64,000 nt of DNA, from contig CM055115.1 of the NCBI GenBank assembly GCA_029204225.1, positions 7,713,710 through 7,777,709 of the forward strand, given 5' to 3'. Below are positions 1 to 64,000 of this stretch, one piece after another (positions within the stretch are counted from its first letter, which is position 1; each line of letters starts with the position of its first letter). Source of the DNA: Diphasiastrum complanatum (taxonomy: Eukaryota; Streptophyta; Lycopodiopsida; Lycopodiales; Lycopodiaceae). Made by a program: the position numbers and the translations under genes. The notes beneath the pieces are model-generated. The model did no database searches. It was not told the DNA's origin and was given only the letters and a program-made list of their open reading frames with translations.

Positions 1-132
1 CCCCCAACGTGGACGCACCCGTGCTTACACCGTGGGCAGCACCTTGCACAACGATCGTCCCGATGAACCCCAAACAATGGCCATCCCCGTGAGATCCACA
101 TAGCTGACGGGCCAGTCGGCTCTGACACCACA
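1..132 (-). repeat. Partial internal region of an array unit at the window edge
   Basis: Matches the primer-site side of the internal region (compare 2783-2914). It shows that the array continues to the left of the window. It holds the primer site at 118-130. Confidence 0.9.
118..130 (-). other. Primer-binding site of the array element (tRNA-iMet type)
   Basis: The minus strand reads TGGTGTCAGAGCC, starting 2 bp after the LTR's terminal ACA. The standard plant initiator-Met-tRNA primer site is TGGTATCAGAGCC, so one of 13 bases differs. The same site recurs beside every untruncated LTR 3' end, for example at 2900-2912, and on the plus strand at 39940, 42517 and 51731. Confidence 0.85.
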
Positions 133-242
133 TGTAGCGCAGGCATCCCGAAGGGAGCCGGGAGCCACGACTTAGCTTCCCAGCCTTCAACTCTTGCCGT
201 CCAAACCCACTTGACATACAAGCAGCCAGCTCGCCAACAACG

Positions 243-497
243 ATCAAACTTAAGCAGCTGGAAGTTCAGAAACCAGCATTGAGATCCAACCTGGCGCCGT
301 GCCAGATCGGGGGTCCCGATGTGGGTGACTCTCCTCCTAGCAAGTCGCCCGACATACATCAAACTTAACCAACTCGAAGCTTCCTTACAAACGAGTAACA
401 TCCATTCCAAGCGAGTGGTTTGACTTACATCAGACTCAACCAACCGAAAGCTTCGTCACGAGCGCTGGAAGCCAACCTGGCGCCACGCCAGACTGGA
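243..497 (-). repeat. Diverged duplicated modules inside the LTR
   Basis: The module at about 243-311 resembles that at about 428-497: both pair a segment of the form atca.actta/ctcaa.ca..t/c.gaa with a downstream core AACCTGGCGCC followed by a GCCAGA. A third related segment lies at 355-383. The LTR thus grew by internal duplication. Seen by eye; exact limits are approximate. A 13-bp deletion inside this region marks the copies at about 17883, 27123 and 61910. Confidence 0.65.
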
Positions 498-646
498 CAG
501 CCATAAACAGGTAACTTCCACCCGAGCAAGCCATCCAACTCAGCCGACAGGTTAGAGCCCGTTCCCCGAGAGCTTAGCCCATTCACGTTCATGCAAGGAA
601 CATTCAGAACCACAAGCCGCGACAGATGTGGAGACAACCAGTTCCT

Positions 647-720
647 GGACCAAATGGTCCCGACAGCATACCGCTGGCGCCACGGACCGAACGGTCCCGA
701 CGGCATACCGCTGGCGTCCC
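647..720 (-). repeat. 37-bp tandem duplication in the LTR
   Basis: Two 37-bp copies (647-683 and 684-720) share GGTCCCGAC.GCATACCGCTGGCG and differ at a few positions. The pair lies downstream of the polyadenylation signal in the sense direction and recurs in all LTR copies that reach this point. Confidence 0.85.
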
Positions 721-838
721 GGGATACGACCCTCGGCTATGTGCCAAATTAAAAAGTCTTAAGCGGCCTTACAACTGGCGCTTTTACCGAACACTGAAAC
801 CCAGAAGGTGATCAGAGTCAGCTTGAGGAAAGTGCCAC

Positions 839-844
839 TTTATT
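839..844 (-). promoter_or_regulatory. AATAAA polyadenylation signal in the array LTR
   Basis: The minus strand reads tatcAATAAAgtgg, about 475 bp after the LTR's sense start. The solo LTR of the second family has an AATAAA in a similar context (aatgtaacctctt...AATAAA against aatgtaaccttct...AATAAA). Two inversion breakpoints fall within about 30 bp of this site in other copies. Confidence 0.6.
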
Positions 845-1034
845 GATAAATCTGAGAAGGTTACATTTCGAGTGTGTGACCGACCCTAGTCTCCGGGGCG
901 CTGGCATGCCAAGGCAAGTGCCAGGACAACATTCCAGCAAGGGAGGCTGAGACTTGGTTGGAGCTCGCCCTGAGTCGCAACCCGCACTCCCCTATACTGT
1001 TGGTGGGATTCGCCACCTCCCCTCATACCAAGTA

Positions 1035-1054
1035 CTCTACCCAGGCTGGTAGAG
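1035..1054. other. Small inverted repeat in the LTR
   Basis: CTCTACC and GGTAGAG form a perfect 7-bp stem with a 6-base loop. It is broken in some copies (actatacc near 18636, 25116, 27876 and 30651; actttacc near 33425; tatcc near 57117), so it is not strictly kept. The ctggtagagcac stretch resembles a tRNA D-arm but has no B box after it. Confidence 0.6.
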
Positions 1055-1062
1055 CACGTTTT

Positions 1063-1086
1063 CTCTCTCTCTCTCTCTCTCTCTCT
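1063..1086 (-). repeat. (GA)n / (CT)n microsatellite in the LTR
   Basis: Twelve CT dinucleotides on the plus strand in this copy. Other copies range from about 9 (12192-12209, 18658-18675) to 13 (38113-38138). It accounts for most length differences between otherwise equal LTRs. Confidence 0.95.
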
Positions 1087-1200
1087 AGAGTTTATTGAGC
1101 TTCCTTTAATCATGCCTAGATCGTGTGAGGCGATTGCACATCGATCTGAGCTCTCTGGACTTCGCTAGAACCGATGAAAGATTTTCAGCCATAGGGACTT

Positions 1201-1286
1201 GGCGCCGGCTGTATTCTGGTCACAGTGGCGCCGGGAGCGACAGGGGTGCTGCTGGCGCCGGGGACAATGTTGGCGCCGCCGGCGCC
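1201..1286. promoter_or_regulatory. Cluster of five GGCGCC palindromes at the start of U3
   Basis: GGCGCC occurs at 1201-1206, 1227-1232, 1254-1259, 1272-1277 and 1281-1286, within about 120 bp of the LTR's sense start. Spacings are 26, 27, 18 and 9 bp. The position fits a U3 enhancer-like or protein-binding element, but function is inferred only. One copy (near 12349) has lost a site by G to T. Confidence 0.5.
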
Positions 1287-1319
1287 GGAAGTAAAGCTTG
1301 TAGGCGTAACTTTACAACA

Positions 1320-1333
1320 TCCACCCCACCTTT
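1320..1333 (-). other. Polypurine tract of the array element
   Basis: The minus strand reads AAAGGTGGGGTGGA immediately before the LTR start TGTTGT. Twelve of the 14 bases are purines. The position is that of the plus-strand primer in LTR elements. It recurs before every LTR start. Confidence 0.7.
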
Positions 1334-1338
1334 ATAAA

Positions 1339-1358
1339 ATCTGATGTCCTCATCAGAT
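1339..1358. other. Perfect 8-bp hairpin next to the polypurine tract
   Basis: ATCTGATG, a TCCT loop, then CATCAGAT. In sense direction it lies just upstream of the purine tract. It recurs in the units; the copy near 28171 has one stem mismatch (atccgatg). Confidence 0.65.
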
Positions 1359-2282
1359 GTCAGGTTAAAGTAAAGGTGTCTCCCAAAAATTAACTATACA
1401 TTTGAGCTACTTGGCACAGTACTCAATTTACTGGCCACTTTTTATTAACATTGAAGCTGGCACGCCACAAGTCGGAGGCTCAGCTCTTTGTACTGAAAAA
1501 TTACTTAACTTTGAAAATATCACTTTGTCTGGGAAAAGCGTAGATTAAATTTATATTGCTTTCGTAAAACCCAAGAACCTTATTAACTGGTGACAAAGGC
1601 CTTTCTGTGAGATGTTCGCCCCTGTCGCTGCTGACTTCTGACATTGGAACTCCTTTGAGCTCCTGATTTGTCCTTGATGCACTTTGTGCTGAGCTCCCCG
1701 ATCTCCAGATTTGATCGATTCCGCACAGGTATCAGGGCTCCCTAAGCCAAAGGATACTTCATGGTCCACTCCGCGCCTTGTTGCTTCTGCACCTTGATTT
1801 CTCTCCTTGTCATTTAAGTGAGTTTCAGTTCCGAAGGTAGCCATCCCAAATGAAGACCAACTGCTCCATAGAAGATCTCCCTTGAAATTGCTCTTTCCAA
1901 CTTTTGACTTCCTGCTTGCGTTTGGTGGGCGTCGTCGCAAATGAAAGTAACCCAAGAAATAGGCCAGCCATCCATCCTTTGCAAACATCGAGTCGTTTCG
2001 TTGTCGTTCACGTGCGAGTACTTGAACTGCGAATCCGCCCCCATATTCTGTAGTCCTCTTTGTTTGATGGCGTCAGCCTTCAAAAGAAAGGTCCCTTCTC
2101 AAGCCATCAGCTCCTTGTATCACAAGCAATCATGCAAACCTCACCACGAATACATGCAAGCAAGACACTCAGGCAGGTTCACTAACAGGTAACAAAGACA
2201 AGGTCCCCCTTTGAGATAGTCCTGCCAAAGGACCTTTGCCTGGCCGCGCCCATACAGATGGATCACAGAACCAGCCCACAGA

Positions 2283-2850
2283 GGACACCCCTCCAACTAC
2301 CCGTGCTTTCACCATTAAGCAGGACATTGCCTCGGTCACGCCCCACCACTTTTTGCTCGATAGCCCTTATAGCTAAACGATCGGCAGCTATCCTTGAATA
2401 TACCACCCCCGCGGACGCACCCGTGCTTTCACCGTTGAACAGCACATTGCCTCAGTGACGCCCCCACCAAATCTAGTCGATAGCCCTTATAGCTAAACGA
2501 TCGACCGCATACCACCCCAATCGTGGACGCACCCGTGCTTTCACCGTTAGGCAGCACATCGCCTCAGTAACGCCCCCACCAAATTTGGTCGATAGCCCTT
2601 ATAGCTAAACGAACGGTGGCTATCGCGAATATGTCACCCCGCACCCCACAAGGCACAGACCGTGCCCAATGGCAGCGCATTGTCCTACGTGCAGACGGCG
2701 CCAGGCCCGAGCCGCGGAAACTGACCGCGCTTACGCCTCAAGGGGAGCACCTTGACTCATCAAGCCCCCGTTTTGCCGACCACCCCCAACGTGGACGCAC
2801 CCGTGCTTACACCGTGGGCAGCACCTTGCACAACGATCGTCCCGATGAAC
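2283..2850 (-). repeat. Sub-repeats in the internal leader of the array element
   Basis: Copies begin at 2283, 2413 and 2525 (spacings 130 and 112 bp), with a shorter diverged copy at about 2793-2850. Each carries CACCCGTGCTTTCACCGTT or a close variant, cagcac..tgcctcagt, and (in the first three) GATAGCCCTTATAGCTAAACGA. They lie just after the primer site in sense direction. Such leader sub-repeats are common in LTR elements; what these do is unknown. Confidence 0.85.
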
Positions 2851-4101
2851 CCCAAACAATGGCCATCCCCGTGAGATCCACATAGCTGACGGGCCAGTCG
2901 GCTCTGACACCACATGTAGCGCAGGCATCCCGAAGGGAGCCGGGAGCCACGACTTAGCTTCCCAGCCTTCAACTCTTGCCGTCCAAACCCACTTGACATA
3001 CAAGCAGCCAGCTCGCCAACAACGATCAAACTTAAGCAGCTGGAAGTTCAGAAACCAGCATTGAGATCCAACCTGGCGCCGTGCCAGATCGGGGGTCCCG
3101 ATGTGGGTGACTCTCCTCCTAGCAAGTCGCCCGACATACATCAAACTTAACCAACTCGAAGCTTCCTTACAAACGAGTAACATCCATTCCAAGCGAGTGG
3201 TTTGACTTACATCAGACTCAACCAACCGAAAGCTTCGTCACGAGCGCTGGAAGCCAACCTGGCGCCACGCCAGACTGGACAGCCATAAACAGGTAACTTC
3301 CACCCGAGCAAGCCATCCAACTCAGCCGACAGGTTAGAGCCCGTTCCCCGAGAGCTTAGCCCATTCACGTTCATGCAAGGAACATTCAGAACCACAAGCC
3401 GCGACAGATGTGGAGACAACCAGTTCCTGGACCAAATGGTCCCGACAGCATACCGCTGGCGCCACGGACCGAACGGTCCCGACGGCATACCGCTGGCGTC
3501 CCGGGATACGACCCTCGGCTATGTGCCAAATTAAAAAGTCTTAAGCGGCCTTACAACTGGCGCTTTTACCGAACACTGAAACCCAGAAGGTGATCAGAGT
3601 CAGCTTGAGGAAAGTGCCACTTTATTGATAAATCTGAGAAGGTTACATTTCGAGTGTGTGACCGACCCTAGTCTCCGGGGCGCTGGCATGCCAAGGCAAG
3701 TGCCAGGACAACATTCCAGCAAGGGAGGCTGAGACTTGGTTGGAGCTCGCCCTGAGTCGCAACCCGCACTCCCCTATACTGTTGGTGGGATTCGCCACCT
3801 CCCCTCATACCAAGTACTCTACCCAGGCTGGTAGAGCACGTTTTCTCTCTCTCTCTCTCTCTCTCTCTAGAGTTTATTGAGCTTCCTTTAATCATGCCTA
3901 GATCGTGTGAGGCGATTGCACATCGATCTGAGCTCTCTGGACTTCGCTAGAACCGATGAAAGATTTTCAGCCATAGGGACTTGGCGCCGGCTGTATTCTG
4001 GTCACAGTGGCGCCGGGAGCGACAGGGGTGCTGCTGGCGCCGGGGACAATGTTGGCGCCGCCGGCGCCGGAAGTAAAGCTTGTAGGCGTAACTTTACAAC
4101 A

Positions 4102-6883
4102 TCCACCCCACCTTTATAAAATCTGATGTCCTCATCAGATGTCAGGTTAAAGTAAAGGTGTCTCCCAAAAATTAACTATACATTTGAGCTACTTGGCACA
4201 GTACTCAATTTACTGGCCACTTTTTATTAACATTGAAGCTGGCACGCCACAAGTCGGAGGCTCAGCTCTTTGTACTGAAAAATTACTTAACTTTGAAAAT
4301 ATCACTTTGTCTGGGAAAAGCGTAGATTAAATTTATATTGCTTTCGTAAAACCCAAGAACCTTATTAACTGGTGACAAAGGCCTTTCTGTGAGATGTTCG
4401 CCCCTGTCGCTGCTGACTTCTGACATTGGAACTCCTTTGAGCTCCTGATTTGTCCTTGATGCACTTTGTGCTGAGCTCCCCGATCTCCAGATTTGATCGA
4501 TTCCGCACAGGTATCAGGGCTCCCTAAGCCAAAGGATACTTCATGGTCCACTCCGCGCCTTGTTGCTTCTGCACCTTGATTTCTCTCCTTGTCATTTAAG
4601 TGAGTTTCAGTTCCGAAGGTAGCCATCCCAAATGAAGACCAACTGCTCCATAGAAGATCTCCCTTGAAATTGCTCTTTCCAACTTTTGACTTCCTGCTTG
4701 CGTTTGGTGGGCGTCGTCGCAAATGAAAGTAACCCAAGAAATAGGCCAGCCATCCATCCTTTGCAAACATCGAGTCGTTTCGTTGTCGTTCACGTGCGAG
4801 TACTTGAACTGCGAATCCGCCCCCATATTCTGTAGTCCTCTTTGTTTGATGGCGTCAGCCTTCAAAAGAAAGGTCCCTTCTCAAGCCATCAGCTCCTTGT
4901 ATCACAAGCAATCATGCAAACCTCACCACGAATACATGCAAGCAAGACACTCAGGCAGGTTCACTAACAGGTAACAAAGACAAGGTCCCCCTTTGAGATA
5001 GTCCTGCCAAAGGACCTTTGCCTGGCCGCGCCCATACAGATGGATCACAGAACCAGCCCACAGAGGACACCCCTCCAACTACCCGTGCTTTCACCATTAA
5101 GCAGGACATTGCCTCGGTCACGCCCCACCACTTTTTGCTCGATAGCCCTTATAGCTAAACGATCGGCAGCTATCCTTGAATATACCACCCCCGCGGACGC
5201 ACCCGTGCTTTCACCGTTGAACAGCACATTGCCTCAGTGACGCCCCCACCAAATCTAGTCGATAGCCCTTATAGCTAAACGATCGACCGCATACCACCCC
5301 AATCGTGGACGCACCCGTGCTTTCACCGTTAGGCAGCACATCGCCTCAGTAACGCCCCCACCAAATTTGGTCGATAGCCCTTATAGCTAAACGAACGGTG
5401 GCTATCGCGAATATGTCACCCCGCACCCCACAAGGCACAGACCGTGCCCAATGGCAGCGCATTGTCCTACGTGCAGACGGCGCCAGGCCCGAGCCGCGGA
5501 AACTGACCGCGCTTACGCCTCAAGGGGAGCACCTTGACTCATCAAGCCCCCGTTTTGCCGACCACCCCCAACGTGGACGCACCCGTGCTTACACCGTGGG
5601 CAGCACCTTGCACAACGATCGTCCCGATGAACCCCAAACAATGGCCATCCCCGTGAGATCCACATAGCTGACGGGCCAGTCGGCTCTGACACCACATGTA
5701 GCGCAGGCATCCCGAAGGGAGCCGGGAGCCACGACTTAGCTTCCCAGCCTTCAACTCTTGCCGTCCAAACCCACTTGACATACAAGCAGCCAGCTCGCCA
5801 ACAACGATCAAACTTAAGCAGCTGGAAGTTCAGAAACCAGCATTGAGATCCAACCTGGCGCCGTGCCAGATCGGGGGTCCCGATGTGGGTGACTCTCCTC
5901 CTAGCAAGTCGCCCGACATACATCAAACTTAACCAACTCGAAGCTTCCTTACAAACGAGTAACATCCATTCCAAGCGAGTGGTTTGACTTACATCAGACT
6001 CAACCAACCGAAAGCTTCGTCACGAGCGCTGGAAGCCAACCTGGCGCCACGCCAGACTGGACAGCCATAAACAGGTAACTTCCACCCGAGCAAGCCATCC
6101 AACTCAGCCGACAGGTTAGAGCCCGTTCCCCGAGAGCTTAGCCCATTCACGTTCATGCAAGGAACATTCAGAACCACAAGCCGCGACAGATGTGGAGACA
6201 ACCAGTTCCTGGACCAAATGGTCCCGACAGCATACCGCTGGCGCCACGGACCGAACGGTCCCGACGGCATACCGCTGGCGTCCCGGGATACGACCCTCGG
6301 CTATGTGCCAAATTAAAAAGTCTTAAGCGGCCTTACAACTGGCGCTTTTACCGAACACTGAAACCCAGAAGGTGATCAGAGTCAGCTTGAGGAAAGTGCC
6401 ACTTTATTGATAAATCTGAGAAGGTTACATTTCGAGTGTGTGACCGACCCTAGTCTCCGGGGCGCTGGCATGCCAAGGCAAGTGCCAGGACAACATTCCA
6501 GCAAGGGAGGCTGAGACTTGGTTGGAGCTCGCCCTGAGTCGCAACCCGCACTCCCCTATACTGTTGGTGGGATTCGCCACCTCCCCTCATACCAAGTACT
6601 CTACCCAGGCTGGTAGAGCACGTTTTCTCTCTCTCTCTCTCTCTCTCTCTAGAGTTTATTGAGCTTCCTTTAATCATGCCTAGATCGTGTGAGGCGATTG
6701 CACATCGATCTGAGCTCTCTGGACTTCGCTAGAACCGATGAAAGATTTTCAGCCATAGGGACTTGGCGCCGGCTGTATTCTGGTCACAGTGGCGCCGGGA
6801 GCGACAGGGGTGCTGCTGGCGCCGGGGACAATGTTGGCGCCGCCGGCGCCGGAAGTAAAGCTTGTAGGCGTAACTTTACAACA
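4102..6883 (-). repeat. Array unit 2
   Basis: 2782 bp: internal region 4102-5696, LTR 5697-6883. Near-identical to unit 1 by eye. Confidence 0.9.
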
Positions 6884-9403
6884 TCCACCCCACCTTTATA
6901 AAATCTGATGTCCTCATCAGATGTCAGGTTAAAGTAAAGGTGTCTCCCAAAAATTAACTATACATTTGAGCTACTTGGCACAGTACTCAATTTACTGGCC
7001 ACTTTTTATTAACATTGAAGCTGGCACGCCACAAGTCGGAGGCTCAGCTCTTTGTACTGAAAAATTACTTAACTTTGAAAATATCACTTTGTCTGGGAAA
7101 AGCGTAGATTAATTTATATTGCTTTCGTAAAACCCAAGAACCTTATTAACTGGTGACAAAGGCCTTTCTGTGAGATGTTCGCCCCTGTCGCTGCTGACTT
7201 CTGACATTGGAACTCCTTTGAGCTCCTGATTTGTCCTTGATGCACTTTGTGCTGAGCTCCCCGATCTCCAGATTTGATCGATTCCGCACAGGTATCAGGG
7301 CTCCCTAAGCCAAAGGATACTTCATGGTCCACTCCGCGCCTTGTTGCTTCTGCACCTTGATTTCTCTCCTTGTCATTTAAGTGAGTTTCAGTTCCGAAGG
7401 TAGCCATCCCAAATGAAGACCAACTGCTCCATAGAAGATCTCCCTTGAAATTGCTCTTTCCAACTTTTGACTTCCTGCTTGCGTTTGGTGGGCGTCGTCG
7501 CAAATGAAAGTAACCCAAGAAATAGGCCAGCCATCCATCCTTTGCAAACATCGAGTCGTTTCGTTGTCGTTCACGTGCGAGTACTTGAACTGCGAATCCG
7601 CCCCCATATTCTGTAGTCCTCTTTGTTTGATGGCGTCAGCCTTCAAAAGAAAGGTCCCTTCTCAAGCCATCAGCTCCTTGTATCACAAGCAATCATGCAA
7701 ACCTCACCACGAATACATGCAAGCAAGACACTCAGGCAGGTTCACTAACAGGTAACAAAGACAAGGTCCCCCTTTGAGATAGTCCTGCCAAAGGACCTTT
7801 GCCTGGCCGCGCCCATACAGATGGATCACAGAACCAGCCCACAGAGGACACCCCTCCAACTACCCGTGCTTTCACCATTAAGCAGGACATTGCCTCGGTC
7901 ACGCCCCACCACTTTTTGCTCGATAGCCCTTATAGCTAAACGATCGGCAGCTATCCTTGAATATACCACCCCCGCGGACGCACCCGTGCTTTCACCGTTG
8001 AACAGCACATTGCCTCAGTGACGCCCCCACCAAATCTAGTCGATAGCCCTTATAGCTAAACGATCGACCGCATACCACCCCAATCGTGGACGCACCCGTG
8101 CTTTCACCGTTAGGCAGCACATCGCCTCAGTAACGCCCCCACCAAATTTGGTCGATAGCCCTTATAGCTAAACGAACGGTGGCTATCGCGAATATGTCAC
8201 CCCGCACCCCACAAGGCACAGACCGTGCCCAATGGCAGCGCATTGTCCTACGTGCAGACGGCGCCAGGCCCGAGCCGCGGAAACTGACCGCGCTTACGCC
8301 TCAAGGGGAGCACCTTGACTCATCAAGCCCCCGTTTTGCCGACCACCCCCAACGTGGACGCACCCGTGCTTACACCGTGGGCAGCACCTTGCACAACGAT
8401 CGTCCCGATGAACCCCAAACAATGGCCATCCCCGTGAGATCCACATAGCTGACGGGCCAGTCGGCTCTGACACCACATGTAGCGCAGGCATCCCGAAGGG
8501 AGCCGGGAGCCACGACTTAGCTTCCCAGCCTTCAACTCTTGCCGTCCAAACCCACTTGACATACAAGCAGCCAGCTCGCCAACAACGATCAAACTTAAGC
8601 AGCTGGAAGTTCAGAAACCAGCATTGAGATCCAACCTGGCGCCGTGCCAGATCGGGGGTCCCGATGTGGGTGACTCTCCTCCTAGCAAGTCGCCCGACAT
8701 ACATCAAACTTAACCAACTCGAAGCTTCCTTACAAACGAGTAACATCCATTCCAAGCGAGTGGTTTGACTTACATCAGACTCAACCAACCGAAAGCTTCG
8801 TCACGAGCGCTGGAAGCCAACCTGGCGCCACGCCAGACTGGACAGCCATAAACAGGTAACTTCCACCCGAGCAAGCCATCCAACTCAGCCGACAGGTTAG
8901 AGCCCGTTCCCCGAGAGCTTAGCCCATTCACGTTCATGCAAGGAACATTCAGAACCACAAGCCGCGACAGATGTGGAGACAACCAGTTCCTGGACCAAAT
9001 GGTCCCGACAGCATACCGCTGGCGCCACGGACCGAACGGTCCCGACGGCATACCGCTGGCGTCCCGGGATACGACCCTCGGCTATGTGCCAAATTAAAAA
9101 GTCTTAAGCGGCCTTACAACTGGCGCTTTTACCGAACACTGAAACCCAGAAGGTGATCAGAGTCAGCTTGAGGAAAGTGCCACTTTATTGATAAATCTGA
9201 GAAGGTTACATTTCGAGTGTGTGACCGACCCTAGTCTCCGGGGCGCTGGCATGCCAAGGCAAGTGCCAGGACAACATTCCAGCAAGGGAGGCTGAGACTT
9301 GGTTGGAGCTCGCCCTGAGTCGCAACCCGCACTCCCCTATACTGTTGGTGGGATTCGCCACCTCCCCTCATACCAAGTACTCTACCCAGGCTGGTAGAGC
9401 ACG

Positions 9404-9434
<31 letters not shown>

Positions 9435-9667
9435 AGAGTTTATTGAGCTTCCTTTAATCATGCCTAGATCGTGTGAGGCGATTGCACATCGATCTGAGCT
9501 CTCTGGACTTCGCTAGAACCGATGAAAGATTTTCAGCCATAGGGACTTGGCGCCGGCTGTATTCTGGTCACAGTGGCGCCGGGAGCGACAGGGGTGCTGC
9601 TGGCGCCGGGGACAATGTTGGCGCCGCCGGCGCCGGAAGTAAAGCTTGTAGGCGTAACTTTACAGCA
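6884..9667 (-). repeat. Array unit 3
   Basis: 2784 bp: internal region 6884-8477, LTR 8478-9667. One A is lost at about 7112 (gattaattt). Its LTR start is altered to TGCTGT (g at 9665), and its microsatellite is longer with an extra T at about 9407. Confidence 0.9.
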
Positions 9668-43951: not shown

Positions 43952-43990
43952 ATGTATTTTGGTCATATAAGCCATTTTTAGCTATTTTTC

Positions 43991-49557: not shown

Positions 49558-50207
49558 AAATTGTCAACATTTCCTAGGTAGTTTGAGGCCTAAATTGGCT
49601 AAAATTGTAAATAGTTTTGGTTCTGGAGTTTCACACGTGTGAACCAGGCCACAATGTTTTTATTTACTGTATTTTTTCAGTATGATGAAGTGTCAAACTT
49701 CATACCCTTCAAAATGAGACCATTTTGATGTATTTTGGTCATATAAGCCATTTTTAGCTATTTTTCCTATATAGGGAATATCTAGGGTCAAGTACCTTCT
49801 AGAGAGAGGAGAGAGAGTCATCTTCCTCATCCATAAATAGTAGGGAAGTCGTGGAGAACAGGTTGGAGAAACCTTTTGTATGCTTCATTGAGATCAATAG
49901 ATCATTGTCATTGTTTCTTCCTCCATTGAGAGCATTGTTGTGTGTATTGTCTTCAAGCTATTGTGTATGATCTTAGGTGCTTTCCAAAAGTGATAGGCTG
50001 ATGTATTATGGACTGTATAATGCTATTTTGGGCCGCACTTGATGTTTATGGAAGTTTCCATTTGTGATAAATGCTTTTTGATCAAGTTCTTTGCATTCTA
50101 GGTAGCATAGAATGTGTTGCCAATTCCTAGCTTATGTAGTTTGGAGTGCAAGCATTCAAGCCAATGATCTTGGAGTTTAGATCCACTTAGGATCTGTATT
50201 TTTCACA
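49553..50207 (+). repeat. 3' LTR of the copia element
   Basis: 655 bp, offset 5776 from the 5' LTR, with the same TGTGAAAA...TTTTCACA ends. No difference seen on reading side by side. Confidence 0.96.
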
Positions 50208-50212
50208 CAAAA

Positions 50213-50545
50213 AAGTTCCAATGTCAGAAGTCAGCAGCGACAGGGGCGAACATCTCACAGAAAGGCCTTTGTCACCAGTTAATAAGGTTCTTGGGTTTTA
50301 CGAAAGCAATATAAATTTAATCTACGCTTTTCCCAGACAAAGTGATATTTTCAAAGTTAAGTAATTTTTCAGTACAAAGAGCTGAGCCTCCGACTTGTGG
50401 CGTGCCAGCTTCAATGTTAATAAAAAGTGGCCAGTAAATTGAGTACTGTGCCAAGTAGCTCAAATGTATAGTTAATTTTTGGGAGACACCTTTACTTTAA
50501 CCTGACATCTGATGAGGACATCAGATTTTATAAAGGTGGGGTGGA
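50213..50545 (+). repeat. Inverted array segment 2, right of the copia insertion
   Basis: Completes the internal region begun at 42515. It ends with the hairpin and the purine tract before the LTR at 50546. It carries the aaggttctt variant of the left-end group (near 50285), unlike the aagcttctt of 53065. Confidence 0.88.
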
Positions 50546-53323: not shown

Positions 53324-53826
53324 TGTTGTAAAGTTACGCCTACAAGCTTTACTTCCGGCGCCGGCGGCGCCAACATTGTCCCCGGCGCCAGCAGCACCCC
53401 TGTCGCTCCCGGCGCCACTGTGACCAAAATACAGCCGGCGCCAAGTCCCTATGGCTGAAAATCTTTCATCGGTTCTAGCGAAGTCCAGAGAGCTCAGATC
53501 GATGTGCAATCGCCTCACACGATCTAGGCATGATTAAAGGAAGCTCAATAAACTCTAGAGAGAGAGAGAGAGAGAGAGAAAACGTGCTCTACCAGCCTGG
53601 GTAGAGTACTTGGTATGAGGGGAGGTGGCGAATCCCACCAACAGTATAGGGGAGTGCGGGTTGCGACTCAGGGCGAGCTCCAACCAAGTCTCAGCCTCCC
53701 TTGCTGGAATGTTGTCCTGGCACTTGCCTTGGCATGCCAGCGCCCCGGAGACTAGGGTCGGTCACACACTCGAAATGTAACCTTCTCAGATTTATCAATA
53801 AAGTGGCACTTTCCTCAAGCTGACTC
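53324..53826 (+). repeat. Inverted LTR, truncated at the third inversion
   Basis: LTR from TGTTGTAAAG to gctgactc, ending about 26 bp after AATAAA. Confidence 0.88.
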
Positions 53827-53832: not shown

Positions 53833-54614
53833 CCCACCAAATTTGGTCGATAGCCCTTATAGCTAAACGAACGGTGGCTATCGCGAATATGTCACCCCGC
53901 ACCCCACAAGGCACAGACAGATGTGGAGACAACCAGTTCCTGGACCAAATGGTCCCGACAGCATACCGCTGGCGCCACGGACCGAACGGTCCCGACGGCA
54001 TACCGCTGGCGTCCCGGGATACGACCCTCGGCTTTGTGCCAAACTAAAAAGTCTTAAGCGGCCTTACAACTGGCGCTTTTACCGAACACTGAAACCCAGA
54101 AGGTGATCAGAGTCAGCTTGAGGAAAGTGCCACTTTATTGATAAATCTGAGAAGGTTACATTTCGAGTGTGTGACCGACCCTAGTCTCCGGGGCGCTGGC
54201 ATGCCAAGGGAAGTGCCAGGACAACATTCCAGCAAGGGAGGCTGAGACTTGGTTGGAGCTCGCCCTGAGTCGCAACCCGCACTCCCCTATACTGTTGGTG
54301 GGATTTGCCACCTCCCCTCATACCAAGTACTCTACCCAGGCTGGAAGAGCACGTTTTCTCTCTCTCTCTCTCTCTCTCTCTAGAGTTTATTGAGCTTCCT
54401 TTAATCATGCCTAGATCGTGTGAGGCGATTGCACATCGATCTGAGCTCTCTGGACTTCGCTAGAACCGATGAAAGATTTTCAGCCATAGGGACTTGGCGC
54501 CGGCTGTATTTTGGTCACAGTGGCGCCGGGAGCGACAGGGGTGCTGCTGGCGCCGGGGACAATGTTGGCGCCGCCGGCGCCGGAAGTAAAGCTTGTAGGC
54601 GTAACTTTACAACA
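53829..54614 (-). repeat. Rearranged unit after J5, with a deletion of about 745 bp
   Basis: A piece of internal leader of about 88 bp (to about 53916) is joined to LTR sequence from about 53917 to 54614. The join cacagacagatg has GAC in common with both parents. Relative to unit 1, positions about 2661-3405 are missing, including the primer site and LTR sense 3' end. Confidence 0.88.
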
Positions 54615-57394
54615 TCCACCCCACCTTTATAAAATCTGATGTCCTCATCAGATGTCAGGTTAAAGTAAAGGTGTCTCCCAAAAATTAACTATACATTTGA
54701 GCTACTTGGCACAGTACTCAATTTACTGGCCACTTTTTATTAACATTGAAGCTGGCACGCCACAAGTCGGAGGCTCAGCTCTTTGTACTGAAAAATTACT
54801 TAACTTTGAAAATATCACTTTGTCTGGGAAAAGCGTAGATTAAATTTATATTGCTTTCGTAAAATCCAAGAAGCTTATTAACTGGTGACAAAGGCCTTTC
54901 TGTGAGATGTTCGCCCCTGTCGCTGCTGACTTCTGACATTGGAACTCCTTTGAGCTCCCGATTTGTCCTTGATGCACTTTGTGCTGAGCTCCCCGATCTC
55001 CAGATTTGATCGATTCCGCACAGGTATCAGGGCTCCCTAAGCCAAAGGATACTTCATGGTCCACTCCGCGCCTTGTTGCTTCTGCACCTTGATTTCTCTC
55101 CTTGTCATTTAAGTGAGTTTCAGTTCCGAAGGTAGCCATCCCAAATGAAGACCAACTGCTCCATAGAAGATCTCCCTTGAAATTGCTCTTTCCAACTTTT
55201 GACTTCCTGCTTGCGTTTGGTGGGCGTCGTCGCAAATGAAAGTAACCCAAGAAATAGGCCAGCCATCCATCCTTTGCAAACATCGAGTCGTTTCGTTGTC
55301 GTTCACGTGCGAGTACTTGAACTGCGAATCCGCCCCCATATTCTGTAGTCCTCTTTGTTTGATGGCGTCAGCCTTCAAAAGAAAGGTCCCTTCTCAAGCC
55401 ATCAGCTCCTTGTATCACAAGCAATCATGCAAACCTCACCACGAATACATGCAAGCAAGACACTCAGGCAGGTTCACTAACAGGTAACAAAGACAAGGTC
55501 CCCCTTTGAGATAGTCCTGCCAAAGGACCTTTGCCTGGCCGCGCCCATACAGATGGATCACAGAACCAGCCCACAGAGGACACCCCTCCAACTACCCGTG
55601 CTTTCACCATTAAGCAGGACATTGCCTCGGTCACGCCCCACCACTTTTTGCTCGATAGCCCTTATAGCTAAACGATCGGCAGCTATCCTTGAATATACCA
55701 CCCCCGCGGACGCACCCGTGCTTTCACCGTTGAACAGCACATTGCCTCAGTGACGCCCCCACCAAATCTAGTCGATAGCCCTTATAGCTAAACGATCGAC
55801 TGCATACCACCCCAATCGTGGACGCACCCGTGCTTTCACCGTTAGGCAGCACATCGCCTCAGTAACGCCCCCACCAAATTTGGTCGATAGCCCTTATAGC
55901 TAAACGAACGGTGGCTATCGCGAATATGTCACCCCGCACCCCACAAGGCACAGACCGTGCCCAATGGCAGCGCATTGTCCTACGTGCAGACGGCGCCAGG
56001 CCCGAGCCGCGGAAACTGACCGCGCTTACGCCTCAAGGGGAGCACCTTGACTCATCAAGCCCCCGTTTTGCCGACCACCCCCAACGTGGACGCACCCGTG
56101 CTTACACCATGGGCAGCACCTTGCACAACGATCGTCCCGATGAACCCCAAACAATGGCCATCCCCGTGAGATCCACATAGCTGACGGGCCAGTCGGCTCT
56201 GACACCACATGTAGCGCAGGCATCCCGAAGGGAGCCGGGAGCCACGACTTAGCTTCCCAGCATACAACTCTTGCCGTCCAAACCCACTTGACATACAAGA
56301 AGCCAGCTCGCCAACAACGATCAATCTTAAGCAGCTGGAAGTTCAGAAACCAGCATTGAGATCCAACCTGGCGCCGTGCCAGATCGGGGGTCCCGATGTG
56401 GGTGACTCTCCTCCTAGCAAGTCGCCCGACATACATCAAACTTAACCAAATCGAAGCTTCCTTACAAACGAGTAACATCCATTCCAAGCGAGTGGTTTGA
56501 CTTACATCAGACTCAACCAACCGAAAGCTTCGTCACGAGCGCTGGAAGCCAACCTGGCGCCACGCCAGACTGGACAGCCATAAACAGGTAACTTCCACCC
56601 GAGCAAGCCATCCAACTCAGCCGACAGGTTAGAGCCCGTTCCCCGAGAGCTTAGCCCATTCACGTTCATGCAAGGAACATTCAGAACCACAAGCCGCGAC
56701 AGATGTGGAGACAACCAGTTCCTGGACCAAATGGTCCCGACAGCATACCGCTGGCGCCACGGACCGAACAGTCCCGACGGCATACCGCTGGCGTCCCGGG
56801 ATACGACCCTCGGCTATGTGCCAAACTAAAAAGTCTTAAGCGGCCTTACAACTGGCGCTTTTACCGAACACTGAAACCCAGAAGGTGATCAGAGTCAGCT
56901 TGAGGAAAGTGCCACTTTATTGATAAATCTAAGAAGGTTACATTTCGAGTGTGTGACCGACCCTAGTCTCCGGGGCGCTGGCACGCCAAGGCAAGTGCCA
57001 GGACTACATTCCAGCAAGGGAGGCTGAGACTTGGTTGGAGCTCGCCCTGAGTCGCAACCCGCACTCCCCTATACTGTTGGTGGGATTCGCCACCTCCCCT
57101 CATACCAAGTACTCTATCCAGGCTGGTAGAGCACGTTTTCTCTCTCTCTCTCTCTCTCTCTAGAGTTTATTGAGCTTCCTTTAATCATGCCTAGATCGTG
57201 TGAGGCGATTGCACATCGATCTGAGCTCTCTGGACTTCGCTAGAACCGATGAAAGATTTTCAGCCATAGGGACTTGGCGCCGGCTGTATTTTGGTCACAG
57301 TGGCGCCGGGAGCGACAGGGGTGCTGCTGGCGCCGGGGACAATGTTGGCGCCGCCGGCGCCGGAAGTAAAGCTTGTAGGCGTAACTTTACAACA
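54615..57394 (-). repeat. Array unit 15
   Basis: 2780 bp: internal region 54615-56209, LTR 56210-57394. It has more private changes than most units (gcatacaact near 56260, caagaagcc near 56297, gaacagtcc near 56767, ctatccagg near 57113). Confidence 0.9.
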
Positions 57395-60172
57395 TCCACC
57401 CCACCTTTATAAAATCTGATGTCCTCATCAGATGTCAGGTTAAAGTAAAGGTGTCTCCCAAAAATTAACTATACATTTGAGCTACTTGGCACAGTACTCA
57501 ATTTACTGGCCACTTTTTATTAACATTGAAGCTGGCACGCCACAAGTCGGAGGCTCAGCTCTTTGTACTGAAAAATTACTTAACTTTGAAAATATCACTT
57601 TGTCTGGGAAAAGCGTAGATTAAATTTATATTGCTTTCGTGAAACCCAAGAAGCTTATTAACTGGTGACAAAGGCATTTCTGTGAGATGTTCGCCCCTGT
57701 CGCTGCTGACTTCTGACATTGGAACTCCTTTGAGCTCCCGATTTGTCCTTGATGCACTTTGTGCTGAGCTCCCCCATCTCCAGATTTGATCGATTCCACA
57801 CAGGTATCAGGGCTCCCTAAGCCAAAGGATACTTCATGGTCCACTCCGCGCCTTGTTGCTTCTGCACCTTGATTTCTCTCCTTGTCATTTAAGTGAGTTT
57901 CAGTTCCGAAGGTAGCCATCCCAAATGAAGACCAACTGCTCCATAGAAGATCTCCCTTGAAATTGCTCTTTCCAACTTTTGACTTCCTGCTTGCGTTTGG
58001 TGGGCGTCGTCGCAAATGAAAGTAACCCAAGAAATAGGCCAGCCATCCATCCTTTGCAAACATCGAGTCGTTTCGTTGTCGTTCACGTGCGAGTACTTGA
58101 ACTGCGAATCCGCCCCCATATTCTGTAGTCCTCTTTGTTTGATGGCGTCAGCCTTCAAAAGAAAGGTCCCTTCTCAAGCCATCAGCTCCTTGTATCACAA
58201 GCAATCATGCAAACCTCACCACGAATACATGCAAGCAAGACACTCAGGCAGGTTCACTAACAGGTAACAAAGACAAGGTCCCCCTTTGAGATAGTCCTGC
58301 CAAAGGACCTTTGCCTGGCCGCGCCCATACAGATGGATCACAGAACCAGCCCACAGAGGACACCCCTCCAACTACCCATGCTTTCACCATTAAGCAGGAC
58401 ATTGCCTCGGTCACGCCCCACCACTTTTTGCTCGATAGCCCTTATAGCTAAACGATCGGCAGCTATCCTTGAATATACCACCCCCGCGGACGCACCCGTG
58501 CTTTCACCGTTGAACAGCACATTGCCTCAGTGACGCCCCCACCAAATCTAGTCGATAGCCCTTATAGCTAAACGATCGACCGCATACCACCCCAATCGTG
58601 GACGCACCCGTGCTTTCACCGTTAGGCAGCACATCGCCTCAGTAACGCCCCCACCAAATTTGGTCGATAGCCCTTATAGCTAAACGAACGGTGGCTATCG
58701 CGAATATGTCACCCCGCACCCCACAAGGCACAGACCGTGCCCAATGGCAGCGCATTGTCCTACGTGCAGACGGCGCCAGGCCCGAGCCGCGGAAACTGAC
58801 CGCGCTTACGCCTCAAGGGGAGCACCTTGACTCATCAAGCCCCCGTTTTGCCGACCACCCCCAACGTGGACGCACCCGTGCTTACACCGTGGGCAGCACC
58901 TTGCACAACGATCGTCCCGATGAACCCCAAACAATGGCCATCCCCGTGAGATCCACATAGCTGACGGGCCAGTCGGCTCTGACACCACATGTAGCGCAGG
59001 CATCCCGAAGGGAGCCGGGAGCCACGACTTAGCTTCCCAGCCTTCAACTCTTGCCGTCCAAACCCACTTGACATACAAGCAGCCAGCTCGCCAACAACGA
59101 TCAATCTTAAGCAGCTGGAAGTTCAGAAACCAGCATTGAGATCCAACCTGGCGCCGTGCCAGATCGGGGGTCCCGATGTGGGTGACTCTCCTCCTAGCAA
59201 GTCGCCCGACATACATCAAACTTAACCAACTCGAAGCTTCCTTACAAACGAGTAACATCCATTCCAAGCGAGTGGTTTGACTTACATCAGACTCAACCAA
59301 CCGAAAGCTTCGTCACGAGCGCTGGAAGCCAACCTGGCGCCACGCCAGACTGGACAGCCATAAACAGGTAACTTCCACCCGAGCAAGCCATCCAACTCAG
59401 CCGACAGGTTAGAGCCCGTTCCCCGAGAGCTTAGCCCATTCACGTTCATGCAAGGAACATTCAGAACCACAAGCCGCGACAGATGTGGAGACAACCAGTT
59501 CCTGGACCAAATGGTCCCGACAGCATACCGCTGGCGCCACGGACCGAACGGTCCCGACGGCATACCGCTGGCGTCCCGGGATACGACCCTCGGCTATGTG
59601 CCAAACTAAAAAGTCTTAAGCGGCCTTACAACTGGCGCTTTTACCGAACACTGAAACCCAGAAGGTGATCAGAGTCAGCTTGAGGAAAGTGCCACTTTAT
59701 TGATAAATCTGAGAAGGTTACATTTCGAGTGTGTGACCGACCCTAGTCTCCGGGGCGCTGGCATGCCAAGGCAAGTGCCAGGACAACATTCCAGCAAGGG
59801 AGGCTGAGACTTGGTTGGAGATCGCCCTGAGTCGCAACCCGCACTCCCCTATACTGTTGGTGGGATTCGCCACCTCCCCTCATACCAAGTACTCTACCCA
59901 GGCTGGTAGAGCACGTTTTCTCTCTCTCTCTCTCTCTCTAGAGTTTATTGAGCTTCCTTTAATCATGCCTAGATCGTGTGAGGCGATTGCACATCGATCT
60001 GAGCTCTCTGGACTTCACTAGAACCGATGAAAGATTTTCAGCCATAGGGACTTGGCGCCGGCTGTATTCTGGTCACAGTGGCGCCGGGAGCGACAGGGGT
60101 GTTGCTGGCGCCGGGGACAATGTTGGCGCCGCCGGCGCCGGAAGTAAAGCTTGTAGGCGTAACTTTACAACA
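57395..60172 (-). repeat. Array unit 16
   Basis: 2778 bp: internal region 57395-58989, LTR 58990-60172. Private changes include aggcatttc near 57673, ctcccccatc near 57770 and ggagatcgcc near 59817. Confidence 0.9.
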
Positions 60173-62683
60173 TCCACCCCACCTTTATAAAATCTGATGT
60201 CCTCATCAGATGTCAGGTTAAAGTAAAGGTGTCTCCCAAAAATTAACTATACATTTGAGCTACTTGGCACAGTACTCAATTTACTGGCCACTTTTTATTA
60301 ACATTGAAGCTGGCACGCCACAAGTCGGAGGCTCAGCTCTTTGTACTGAAAAATTACTTAACTTTGAAAATATCACTTTGTCTGGGAAAAGCGTAGATTA
60401 AATTTATATTGCTTTCGTAAAACCCAAGAAGCTTATTAACTGGTGACAAAGGCCTTTCTGTGAGATGTTCGCCCCTGTCGCTGCTGACTTCTGACATTGG
60501 AACTCCTTTGAGCTCCTGATTTGTCCTTGATGCACTTTGTGCTGAGCTCCCCGATCTCCAGATTTGATCGATTCCGCACAGGTATCAGGGCTCCCTAAGC
60601 CAAAGGATACTTCATGGTCCACTCCGCGCCTTGTTGCTTCTGCACCTTGATTTCTCTCCTTGTCATTTAAGTGAGTTTCAGTTCCGAAGGTAGCCATCCC
60701 AAATGAAGACCAACTGCTCCATAGAAGATCTCCCTTGAAATTGCTCTTTCCAACTTTTGACATCCTGCTTGCGTTTGGTGGGCGTCGTCGCAAATGAAAG
60801 TAACCCAAGAAATAGGCCAGCCATCCATCCTTTGCAAACATCGAGTCGTTTCGTTGTCGTTCACGTGCGAGTACTTGAACTGCGAATCCGCCCCCATATT
60901 CTGTAGTCCTCTTTGTTTGATGGCGTCAGCCTTCAAAAGAAAGGTCCCTTCTCAAGCCATCAGCTCCTTGTATCACAAGCAATCATGCAAACCTCACCTC
61001 GAATACATGCAAGCAAGACACTCAGGCAGGTTCACTAACAGGTAACAAAGACAAGGTCCCCCTTTGAGATAGTCCTGCCAAAGGACCTTTGCCTGGCCGC
61101 GCCCATACAGATGGATCACAGAACCAGCCCACAGAGGACACCCCTCCAACTACCCGTGCTTTCACCATTAAGCAGGACATTGCCTCGGTCACGCCCCACC
61201 ACTTTTTGCTCGATAGCCCTTATAGCTAAACGATCGGCAGCTATCCTTGAATATACCACCCCCGCGGACGCACCCGTGCTTTCACCGTTGAACAGCACAT
61301 TGCCTCAGTGACGCCCCCACCAAATCTAGTCGATAGCCCTTATAGCTAAACAATCGACCGCATACCACCCCAATCGTGGACGCACCCGTGCTTTCACCGT
61401 TAGGCAGCACATCGCCTCAGTAACGCCCCCACCAAATTTGGTCGATAGCCCTTATAGCTAAACGAACGGTGGCTATCGCGAATATGTCACCCCGCACCCC
61501 ACAAGGCACAGACCGTGCCCAATGGCAACGCATTGTCCTACGTGCAGACGGCGCCAGGCCCGAGCCGCGAAAACTGACCGCGCTTATGCCTCAAGGGGAG
61601 CACCTTGACTCATCAAGCCCCCGTTTTGCCGACCACCCCCAACGTGGACGCACCCGTGCTTACACCGTGGGCAGCACCTTGCACAACGATCGTCCCGATG
61701 AACCCCAAACAATGGCCATCCCCGTGAGATCCACATAGCTGACGGGCCAGTCGGCTCTGACACCACATGTAGCGCAGGCATCCCGAAGGGAGCCGGGAGC
61801 CACGACTTAGCTTCCCAGCCTTCAACTCTTGCCGTCCAAACCCACTTGACATACAAGCAGCCAGCTCGCCAACAACGATCAATCTTAAGCAGCTGGAAGT
61901 TCAGAAACCAACCTGGCGCCGTGCCAGATCGGGGGTCCCGATGTGGGTGACTCTCCTCCTAGCAAGTCGCCCGACATACATCAAACTTAACCAACTCGAA
62001 GCTTCCTTACAAACGAGTAACATCCATTCCAAGCGAGTGGTTTGACTTACATCAGACTCAACCAACCGAAAGCTTCGTCACGAGCGCTGGAAGCCAACCT
62101 GGCGCCACGCCAGACTGGACAGCCATAAACAGGTAACTTCCACCCGAGCAAGCCATCCAACTCAGCCGACAGGTTAGAGCCCGTTCCCCGAGAGCTTAGC
62201 CCATTCACGTTCATGCAAGGAACATTCAGAACCACAAGCCGCGACAGATGTGGAGACAACCAGTTCCTGGACCAAATGGTCCCGACAGCATACCGCTGGC
62301 GCCACGGACCGAACGGTCCCGACGGCATACCGCTGGCGTCCCGGGATACGACCCTCGGCTATGTGCCAAACTAAAAAGTCTTAAGCGGCCTTACAACTGG
62401 CGCTTTTACCGAACACTGAAACCCAGAAGGTGATCAGAGTCAGCTTGAGGAAAGTGCCACTTTATTGATAAATCTGAGAAGGTTACATTTCGAGTGTGTG
62501 ACCGACCCTAGTCTCCGGGGCGCTTGCATGCCAAGGCAAGTGCCAGGACAACATTCCAGCAAGGGAGGCTGAGACTTGGTTGGAGCTCGCCCTGAGTCGC
62601 AACCCGCACTCCCCTATACTGTTGGTGGGATTCGCCACCTCCCCTCATACCAAGTACTCTACCCAGGCTGGTAGAGCACGTTT

Positions 62684-62714
<31 letters not shown>

Positions 62715-62943
62715 TTTATTGAGCTTCCTTTAATCATGCCTAGATCGTGTGACGCGATTGCACATCGATCTGAGCTCTCTGGACTTCGCTAGAACCGATG
62801 AAAGATTTTCAGCCATAGGGACTTGGCGCCGGCTGTATTCTGGTCACAGTGGCGCCGGGAGCGACAGGGGTGCTGCTGGCGCCGGGGACAATGTTGGCGC
62901 CGCCGGCGCCGGAAGTAAAGCTTGTAGGCGTAACTTTACAACA
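60173..62943 (-). repeat. Array unit 17
   Basis: 2771 bp: internal region 60173-61767, LTR 61768-62943. It has the 13-bp deletion of units 6 and 9 (at about 61910) but keeps gggattcgcc, so the deletion marker is combined with a different LTR half. Confidence 0.9.
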
Positions 62944-64000
62944 TCCACCCCACCTTTATAAAATCTGATGTCCTCATCAGATGTCAGGTTAAAGTAAAGG
63001 TGTCTCCCAAAAATTAACTATACATTTGAGCTACTTGGCACAGTACTCAATTTACTGGCCACTTTTTATTAACATTGAAGCTGGCACGCCACAAGTCGGA
63101 GGCTCAGCTCTTTGTACTGAAAAATTACTTAACTTTGAAAATATCACTTTGTCTGGGAAAAGCGTAGATTAAATTTATATTGCTTTCGTAAAACCCAAGA
63201 ACCTTATTAACTGGTGACAAAGGCCTTTCTGTGAGATGTTCGCCCCTGTCGCTGCTGACTTCTGACATTGGAACTCCTTTGAGCTCCTGATTTGTCCTTG
63301 ATGCACTTTGTGCTGAGCTCCCCGATCTCCAGATTTGATCGATTCCGCACAGGTATCAGGGCTCCCTAAGCCAAAGGATACTTCATGGTCCACTCCGCGC
63401 CTTGTTGCTTCTGCACCTTGATTTCTCTCCTTGTCATTTAAGTGAGTTTCAGTTCCGAAGGTAGCCATCCCAAATGAAGACCAACTGCTCCATAGAAGAT
63501 CTCCCTTGAAATTGCTCTTTCCAACTTTTGACTTCCTGCTTGCGTTTGGTGTGCGTCGTCGCAAATGAAAGTAACCCAAGAAATAGGCCAACCATCCATC
63601 CTTTGCAAACATCGAGTCGTTTCGTTGTCGTTCACGTGCGAGTACTTGAACTGCGAATCCGCCCCCATATTCTGTAGTCCTCTTTGTTTGATGGCGTCAG
63701 CCTTCAAAAGAAAGGTCCCTTCTCAAGCCATCAGCTCCTTGTATCACAAGCAATCATGCAAACCTCACCACGAATACATGCAAGCAAGGACACTCAGGCA
63801 GGTTCACTAACAGGTAACAAAGACAAGGTCCCCCTTTGAGATAGTCCTGCCAAAGGACCTTTGCCTGGCCGCGCCCATACAGATGGATCACAGAACCAGC
63901 CCACAGAGGACACCCCTCCAACTACCCGTGCTTTCACCATTAAGCAGGACATTGCCTCGGTCACGCCCCACCACTTTTTGCTCGATAGCCCTTATAGCTA
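62944..64000 (-). repeat. Partial array unit at the right edge
   Basis: Internal region running off the window, so the array continues. It returns to left-end group markers (agaacctt near 63198, gctcctgat near 63282). Confidence 0.9.

What the first reader, a model, noticed from the sequence alone, without database searches (positions are those of the whole stretch)
1..64000. A tandem array whose repeat unit is an LTR retrotransposon sharing LTRs
Seen: about 20 units with one LTR plus one internal region each, primer site and purine tract in the right places, and no target duplications between units. Known: multimers of small non-autonomous LTR elements form by unequal exchange between LTRs. 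Inference: this is satellite DNA born from a retroelement, and the array is longer than the window at both ends. Such arrays may occupy centromeric or heterochromatic sites; nothing here proves that.
Basis: partly seen in the sequence, partly recalled or inferred. Interest (0 to 1): 0.8.

Follow-up and report, generated by a model that had tools for sequence, protein, structure and literature searches.

The report
Satellite array built from a retrotransposon
The window is part of a plant tandem array in which each repeat is one long terminal repeat plus the non-coding interior of a retrotransposon; scattered relatives with proper insertion ends exist in the same genome, but this version was found only in arrays and damaged leftovers, so a mobile element seems to have become satellite DNA.

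Summary
Primer site and purine tract are in place, mostly on the minus strand; 39.2-53.8 kb is inverted and holds a copia insertion. A trimer sharing LTRs inside one target duplication, on C1, looks like the intermediate. New here: the array-type LTR start occurs 180 times, always after an A as behind the purine tract, and 0 times after another base; the dispersed type has 2,424 starts after another base. In LTR trees the dispersed rows stand apart from all sampled arrays. In 3 of 5 array loci measured, units are nearly identical. Best reading: satellite DNA born from a non-autonomous LTR retrotransposon by LTR-LTR exchange, now spreading as DNA. The kind is known (rice LTR tandems, Cassandra arrays, CRM1TR, kangaroo megasatellite). 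Array ends lie in gaps; centromere position is untested.

The parts
1..39210 (-). array block, units head to tail, retroelement sense on the minus strand
39210..53826 (+). inverted part of the array (mostly plus sense; 41,004-41,787 is minus) with fold-back junctions; the same junction (interior 759 / LTR 460) occurs at 39,210 and 41,787
53904..64000 (-). array block, minus sense, running into the assembly gap at the window end
2915..4101 (-). representative LTR, TGTTGT...GCTACA, 1,187 bp
   Evidence: ends agree with dispersed insertions
2900..2912 (-). primer binding site TGGTGTCAGAGCC, two bases behind the LTR end
1320..2914 (-). representative non-coding internal region, 1,595 bp
4102..4115 (-). 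polypurine tract AAAGGTGGGGTGGA directly before the LTR start
2299..2646 (-). three 112-bp subrepeats inside the internal region
14922..15841 (+). 920-bp solo LTR of another family inside an array LTR, target duplication GCCAC
21388..22307 (+). second copy of that solo LTR at the same unit position; the compared 925 bp (insert + duplication) are identical: copied together with its unit
43777..50207 (+). Ty1/copia element inserted in an array unit: LTRs 43,777-44,431 and 49,553-50,207 identical; 1,322-aa stop-to-stop frame; flanks CAAAG / CAAAA

Best explanation
The window is part of a satellite array whose monomer is one LTR plus the whole non-coding interior (primer site to purine tract) of a non-autonomous LTR retrotransposon. 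Shown: the family exists as thousands of dispersed LTR insertions in this genome; one site carries a trimer that shares LTRs inside one target duplication; the sampled array LTRs stand apart from the sampled dispersed LTRs; the array-type LTR start was never found at a free 5' end; a two-unit block was copied within the window. Inferred: an insertion gained extra units by unequal exchange or gene conversion between its LTRs, the reverse product being solo LTRs; the array then grew by exchange of blocks, was homogenised, and seeded other loci (four clusters on C14; C6; C21; a remnant on C10) as DNA rather than by retrotransposition.
For: Anatomy. Dispersed full copies with perfect TSDs, LTR pairs 95.28% and 99.68% identical; solo LTRs with perfect TSDs. 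C1 trimer 47,766,988-47,779,627: outer flanks GTCAC/GTCAC; two of its three inner purine-tract|LTR junctions and three of four LTRs read in full; the three LTRs differ by 0.08-0.33%, the compared 1,239-bp part of the three interiors by 0%. Array-type LTR starts: 180 after A, 0 after another base (that pattern read backwards, the tool's control, matched 28 times). Dispersed type: 2,424 after a base other than A. Tree of 45 LTRs: the 22 dispersed rows are one side of a branch, SH-aLRT 99; in the earlier 43-row tree the 18 dispersed rows have support 0.987. LTR substitutions within C24 0.05% (left, 5 LTRs) and 0.75% (10 of the 17 complete window LTRs), within C1881 0.08%, within C14 11 Mb 0.00%. 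A two-unit block with its solo-LTR insert was copied at 6,466 bp distance, and the first three units differ by no substitution.
Against: No TSD can be shown for the window's own array: both ends lie in gaps. No direct parent of the array lineage was found; array LTRs differ from two dispersed LTRs by 6.4-9.2% substitutions, so the founding insertion is inferred. Homogenisation is not general: two LTRs at C14 5.7 Mb differ by 4.0% and two at C14 2.7 Mb by 3.3%, while C24 and C6/C1881 differ by only 0.85-1.1%. In the first tree the C14 2.7 Mb arrays group with the dispersed rows (support 0.827), and in the second the fork joining all arrays has support 6: one array origin is not shown. One locus (L010) has a TSD and an array-like 3' LTR, with a dispersed-type 5' LTR piece. 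Nine free 3' LTR ends carry the array's base at the one site where array and dispersed ends differ; I did not fetch them, and one base is a weak marker. The changed primer site is not common to all arrays: C14 5.7 and 2.69 Mb and C10 have TGGTATCAGAGCC. Exchange cannot be told from concatenated cDNA or rolling circles by sequence alone.
Confidence: 0.86

Rival explanations
1. The multimers were made before integration: template switching, or read-through transcription of one-LTR circles, gave concatenated cDNA that was inserted as a tandem.
For: The C1 trimer is bounded by one TSD and the compared part of its interiors is identical; such routes are discussed for Cassandra and for rice tandems.
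Against: It does not explain about 40 units in one array (38 exact primer-site junctions on C24), the copying of a two-unit block with its later solo-LTR insert, or the lack of free array-type 5' ends.
Confidence: 0.3
2. Rolling-circle amplification of one-LTR circles and re-integration of the product made the arrays and moved them between chromosomes.
For: Related arrays or array pieces on C14, C21, C6, C10 and C24 without free array-type 5' LTR ends.
Against: No circle was tested. C24 may be an unplaced part or the other haplotype of a placed chromosome, which would lower the number of transfers.
Confidence: 0.3
3. The arrays arose more than once, each from its own insertion by LTR-LTR exchange.
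For: The C1 trimer shows that the dispersed type can start a tandem; the C14 2.7 Mb type groups with dispersed rows in one tree (0.827), and no well supported branch joins all arrays.
Against: In both trees the dispersed rows are one group (0.987; 99), so no sampled array nests within them; array and dispersed LTR starts differ.
Confidence: 0.2
4. Nested or neighbouring independent insertions that only look tandem.
For: The family nests: the C1 trimer sits inside another LTR of the family.
Against: No TSD at unit junctions; one LTR per interior; full units 99.1-100% identical to the reference unit.
Confidence: 0.02
5. Assembly artefact: repeated units placed between gaps.
For: The array lies between two N gaps; the unplaced contig C1881 repeats the C6 edge.
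Against: Units carry private substitutions and indels, two carry solo LTRs, one a copia element; related arrays occur at other loci.
Confidence: 0.04

Closest known systems
Tandem LTR retrotransposons sharing internal LTRs in rice and other plants (PMC11899658; abstract, passages and discussion seen)
   Same: alternating LTR and interior with shared LTRs, one outer TSD (seen here at the C1 trimer)
   Different: the 28 selected rice tandems encode retrotransposon domains; of the two loci described in what I saw, one has two interiors and three LTRs, and I saw no array lengths for the rest; here the element is non-coding, the array has tens of units, and its lineage showed no free 5' LTR end
Cassandra TRIM tandem arrays (PMC7215508; abstract and discussion seen)
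   Same: non-autonomous LTR element, unit of LTR plus interior, near-identical units
   Different: Cassandra carries 5S RNA in its LTR and up to 12 repeats per array are reported; no Rfam family matches here and the LTR is 1.19 kb
CRM1TR and CRM4TR of maize, and sobo of wild potato as cited there (PMC3648361; passages seen)
   Same: long plant arrays derived from LTR retrotransposons, CRM arrays interrupted by later LTR insertions
   Different: CRM monomers hold part of the LTR and UTR with an internal deletion; the unit here keeps a complete LTR, primer site, interior and purine tract
Kangaroo KERV megasatellite with retained provirus structure (seen only as a reference title and a sentence in PMC11899658; paper not read)
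   Same: by that account tandem LTR structures, in centromeres
   Different: marsupial endogenous retrovirus; details not checked

Membership tests
LTR retrotransposon (parent element) | LTRs TG...CA, primer site behind the 5' LTR, purine tract before the 3' LTR | tested here: met
LTR retrotransposon (parent element) | insertions flanked by a 5-bp target duplication exactly at the LTR ends | tested here: met
   dispersed relatives: ATAGA, GTATG, CCTTC, GGAGG, trimer GTCAC; not shown for the array lineage itself
LTR retrotransposon (parent element) | gag and pol (autonomous element) | tested here: not met
   three frames of the array unit and one of the solo-LTR insert: 0 Pfam families at E <= 1; no stop-to-stop frame over 242 codons on the element strand in the three 10-kb dispersed pieces; hence read as non-autonomous
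Tandem LTR retrotransposon sharing LTRs | alternating LTR and interior, no TSD between units | tested here: met
Tandem LTR retrotransposon sharing LTRs | one TSD around the whole tandem | tested here: inconclusive
   window array ends lie in gaps; met for the C1 trimer of the dispersed type
Satellite DNA | long tandem array of near-identical units | tested here: met
   about 120 kb between two gaps on C24 with 38 exact primer-site junctions
Satellite DNA | more alike within an array than between arrays | tested here: inconclusive
   within 0.00-0.75% at C24, C1881 and C14 11 Mb, but 4.0% and 3.3% at two C14 loci; between most loci 2.2-7.9%, C24 to C6/C1881 0.85-1.1%
Centromeric satellite | CENH3 association | not testable with these tools
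   no chromatin data
Cassandra TRIM | 5S RNA sequence in the LTR | tested here: not met
   0 Rfam matches in the window at gathering score
CRM-derived tandem repeats | partial LTR-UTR monomer with internal deletion | tested here: not met
   unit holds the whole LTR and the interior from primer site to purine tract

The most novel reading that the evidence does not exclude
An LTR retrotransposon lineage has gone over to life as a satellite: it has lost its free insertions, persists in arrays and their fragments, and reaches new chromosomal sites as DNA, while its sister lineage still retrotransposed recently and is caught starting a new tandem in the same genome. The genome would thus show the stages of the change side by side.
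Probability: 0.45. Interest if true: 0.6.

Novelty: new member of a known kind. Interest (0 to 1): 0.42.

Why it matters
The origin of satellites from mobile elements is often inferred from the end product. Here dispersed insertions, solo LTRs, a TSD-bounded trimer and long arrays occur in one genome, so the order of events and the switch from retrotransposition to DNA-level amplification can be tested by comparing plants of the species. The concentration on C14 and C24 (61 and 29 of the first 100 listed array-type LTR starts) is testable by FISH.

Tried and rejected
A unit length of 3.97 kb: that is the LTR-interior-LTR length; the unit is 2.78 kb. Noncoding RNA genes (5S as in Cassandra): 0 Rfam matches. 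Coding capacity of the unit: 0 Pfam families for the three unit frames tried. Array-type dispersed copies: of the lone junctions on C1-C23 I fetched all six. L008 (C1) is a fragment, 99% like two unplaced contigs, L011 and L012; L009 (C10) is interior-LTR-interior; L010 is the hybrid; L054 and L055 are truncated fragments; L056 (C16) has only a weak 95-base match to the array LTR. None of the six shows an array-type free 5' LTR end, in line. The three array-type primer-site hits outside arrays (C11 twice, C21 once) are dispersed-type elements by their LTRs. C1881 as a separate array: its edge equals the C6 edge, so I treat it as the same array or its other haplotype. A DNA search with a whole unit returned only 3 matches because candidates are capped, so I used patterns.

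Limits: pattern counts are exact-match counts and miss mutated ends; one search shows an A before the LTR start, not the whole purine tract (the tract itself was in the 33-base pattern, 338 places with up to 3 mismatches). Lists show only the first 100 places (of 180, 338,636,424,470). The 12 dispersed loci were picked by me from the 100 listed C1 places, so they are all from C1; L016 was cut on the wrong side and dropped, leaving 11. The nine places were not fetched. In one search, 16 interiors and 15 LTRs of the window were compared, ten window LTRs. Parts of the C1 trimer (two stretches, with one LTR start) were not fetched. Sister divergence was not turned into years. The species is not identified; 'plant' is my inference from the copia element and the primer site.
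Full report
The window is C24:7,713,710-7,777,709 of a 1.74-Gb assembly. Its commonest repeat spacings are 2,763-2,784 bp, and full units are 99.1-100% identical to the unit at 1,062-3,843. Three 112-bp subrepeats and a TC tract recur in the units. No Rfam family reaches its gathering score.

Read on the minus strand, one unit is an LTR (TGTTGTAAAG...GCGCTACA, 1,187 bp), the bases TG, the primer site TGGTGTCAGAGCC, a 1,595-bp interior and the purine tract AAAGGTGGGGTGGA, directly followed by the next LTR. From I count 22 LTR copies, 17 of them complete. The frames of the unit that I tried (173, 168 and 252 aa) match no Pfam family.

The window is not a plain ladder. From 39,210 to about 53,826 the array is inverted for the most part, with the same fold-back junction (interior 759 / LTR 460) at 39,210 and 41,787. 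A copia element with identical LTRs and a 1,322-aa frame lies at 43,777-50,207, flanked by CAAAG/CAAAA. Two units carry a 920-bp solo LTR of another family with duplication GCCAC at the same place; the compared 925 bp are identical, and the exact match at 6,466 bp distance runs from 12,788 to 16,489. So a block of units was copied as DNA after that insertion. The first three units differ by no substitution.

Extent. To the left the array continues in 2.78-kb steps to C24:7,657,529, where a gap begins. To the right the window ends at a gap of at least 10 kb. Of ten 400-bp samples between 7.50 and 7.98 Mb outside the gaps, 0 match the array. On C24, 38 array-type primer-site junctions match exactly.

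Dispersed relatives. The last 17 bases of the LTR followed by a base other than T (so not by the TG before the primer site) occur 2,470 times. Of 12 loci fetched from the C1 part of that list, 11 were usable. All 11 hold family LTR sequence; in 10 of 11 it begins at the array LTR's first base and ends at its last (L026 with an internal deletion), while L022 is rearranged. For two I compared both ends of the full copy: TSD ATAGA with LTRs 95.28% identical, and TSD GTATG with LTRs 99.68% identical. L018 and L027 are solo LTRs with TSDs CCTTC and GGAGG; L023 and L025 have flanks that differ by one base (CATGA/CATAA, TTGCT/ATGCT). The 5' LTRs of two dispersed copies are followed by TGTGGTATCAGAGCC; the purine tract agrees; the interior differs in length and has no long frame. 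Array LTRs differ from two dispersed LTRs by 6.4-9.2% substitutions.

An intermediate. Primer-site hits at 3,809-bp steps on C1 pointed to a tandem. The pieces read fit LTR-interior-LTR-interior-LTR-interior-LTR at 47,766,988-47,779,627: outer flanks GTCAC on both sides; two of three inner LTR starts read, both directly behind the purine tract; three of four LTRs read in full, 0.08-0.33% apart; the fourth LTR read for 304 bases; the compared 1,239-bp part of the three interiors identical. The trimer is of the dispersed type and sits inside another LTR of the family.

No free 5' end in the array lineage. The array-type LTR start (TGYNGTAAAGTTACSCC) occurs 180 times after an A, as behind the purine tract, and 0 times after another base (a narrower pattern also 0). 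The tool's control, the pattern read backwards, matched 28 times, so a pattern of this length can match by chance; 0 is then all the more telling. The dispersed type occurs 2,424 times after a base other than A, so the test can see free ends. Among the first 100 of the 180 places, 61 lie on C14, 29 on C24, 5 on C6, 2 on C21 and one each on C1, C10 and C16; the other 80 are not listed. The six lone places on C1-C23 were fetched: fragments, an interior-LTR-interior remnant, a weak match and the hybrid L010. Against the reading: L010 has TSD CACTG, a dispersed-type 5' LTR piece and an array-like 3' LTR, which hints at a mobile past; and nine free 3' LTR ends carry the array's base at the one nearby site where the two types differ. 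I did not fetch those nine; one base is a weak marker.

Primer sites. The change to TGGTGTCAGAGCC is shared by C24, C6 and C1881; C14 5.7 and 2.69 Mb and C10 keep TGGTATCAGAGCC, and C14 2.72 and 2.77 Mb show other changes. So the missing free ends are not explained by that one change.

Tree and divergence. In a tree of 45 LTRs the 22 dispersed rows form one side of a branch (SH-aLRT 99). Array rows fall into groups: C14 2.72 and 2.77 Mb with C21 (100); C14 11 Mb, the fragment at C14 20 Mb and two of three C14 5.7 Mb LTRs (99); C24 with C6 and C1881 (98). The fork that would join all arrays has support 6. The earlier tree of 43 LTRs keeps the 18 dispersed rows together (0.987) but puts the C14 2.72/2.77 Mb arrays with them (0.827). 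So the dispersed copies are apart from the arrays, but one origin of all arrays is not shown. Substitutions within a locus are 0.05-0.75% at C24, 0.08% at C1881 and 0.00% at C14 11 Mb, but 4.0% at C14 5.7 Mb and 3.3% at C14 2.7 Mb (two LTRs each); between loci 2.2-7.9%, except C24 to C6/C1881 (0.85-1.1%) and C6 to C1881 (0.29%). Three of five loci thus look homogenised. C24 is a 10.9-Mb scaffold and C1881 repeats the C6 edge, so the C24-C6 likeness may be a matter of assembly; one type shared by C14, C21 and the C6 edge is better evidence of movement between chromosomes.

Mechanism. Best supported: an insertion of a non-autonomous LTR element multiplied by LTR-LTR exchange, with solo LTRs as the counter-product, then block duplication, homogenisation in part and spread as DNA. 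Shown are the dispersed insertions, the trimer inside one TSD, the block copy and the lack of free array-type 5' ends; the exchange itself and the way of spreading are inferred. Concatenated cDNA and rolling circles remain open for the first and last step.

Known context. Tandem LTR retrotransposons sharing LTRs and bounded by one TSD are described in rice (PMC11899658: abstract, passages and discussion seen), Cassandra arrays in many plants (PMC7215508: abstract and discussion), retrotransposon-derived tandem repeats in maize (PMC3648361: passages), and expansion of subrepeats inside retrotransposons in Lathyrus sativus (PMC7004042: passages). Passages of a review (PMC9659126) and of a Vaccinium study (PMC7290377) were also seen. 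The kangaroo megasatellite I know only from PMC11899658. I ran five literature searches and make no claim that the array-only pattern is absent from print. The finding is a well-documented new member of a known kind.

The main confidence stays.

Noticed in passing
43777-50207: Copia element with identical LTRs and a 1,322-aa stop-to-stop frame holding gag, integrase and reverse transcriptase domains, inserted in an array unit: a recent insertion.
   Followed up: partly
39210 and 41787: The same fold-back junction (interior 759 joined to inverted LTR 460) occurs twice, 2,577 bp apart: an inversion junction that was duplicated.
   Followed up: partly
L010:3454-5187 (C14:15.34 Mb): Insertion with TSD CACTG whose 5' LTR piece is dispersed-type and whose 3' LTR is array-like; two LTRs of one insertion should start out identical.
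   Followed up: partly
14922-15841 and 21388-22307: Solo LTR of a weakly related family that starts TGTTGTAAAG and ends in ACAATA, not CA.
   Followed up: partly
L008, L011, L012: A 6.5-kb stretch 99% alike on C1 and two unplaced contigs holds a 291-bp array-like LTR piece next to a long diverged inverted repeat.
   Followed up: no
L032, L033 (C14:2.72 and 2.77 Mb): An array of another type (87-94% identical to the window unit) in which units with a complete LTR alternate with units whose LTR match begins at base 50: perhaps a two-unit higher-order repeat.
   Followed up: no
window units: LTRs vary about twice as much as interiors within the array (mean 0.63% against 0.32% of columns per pair; 15 LTRs and 16 interiors).
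   Followed up: no
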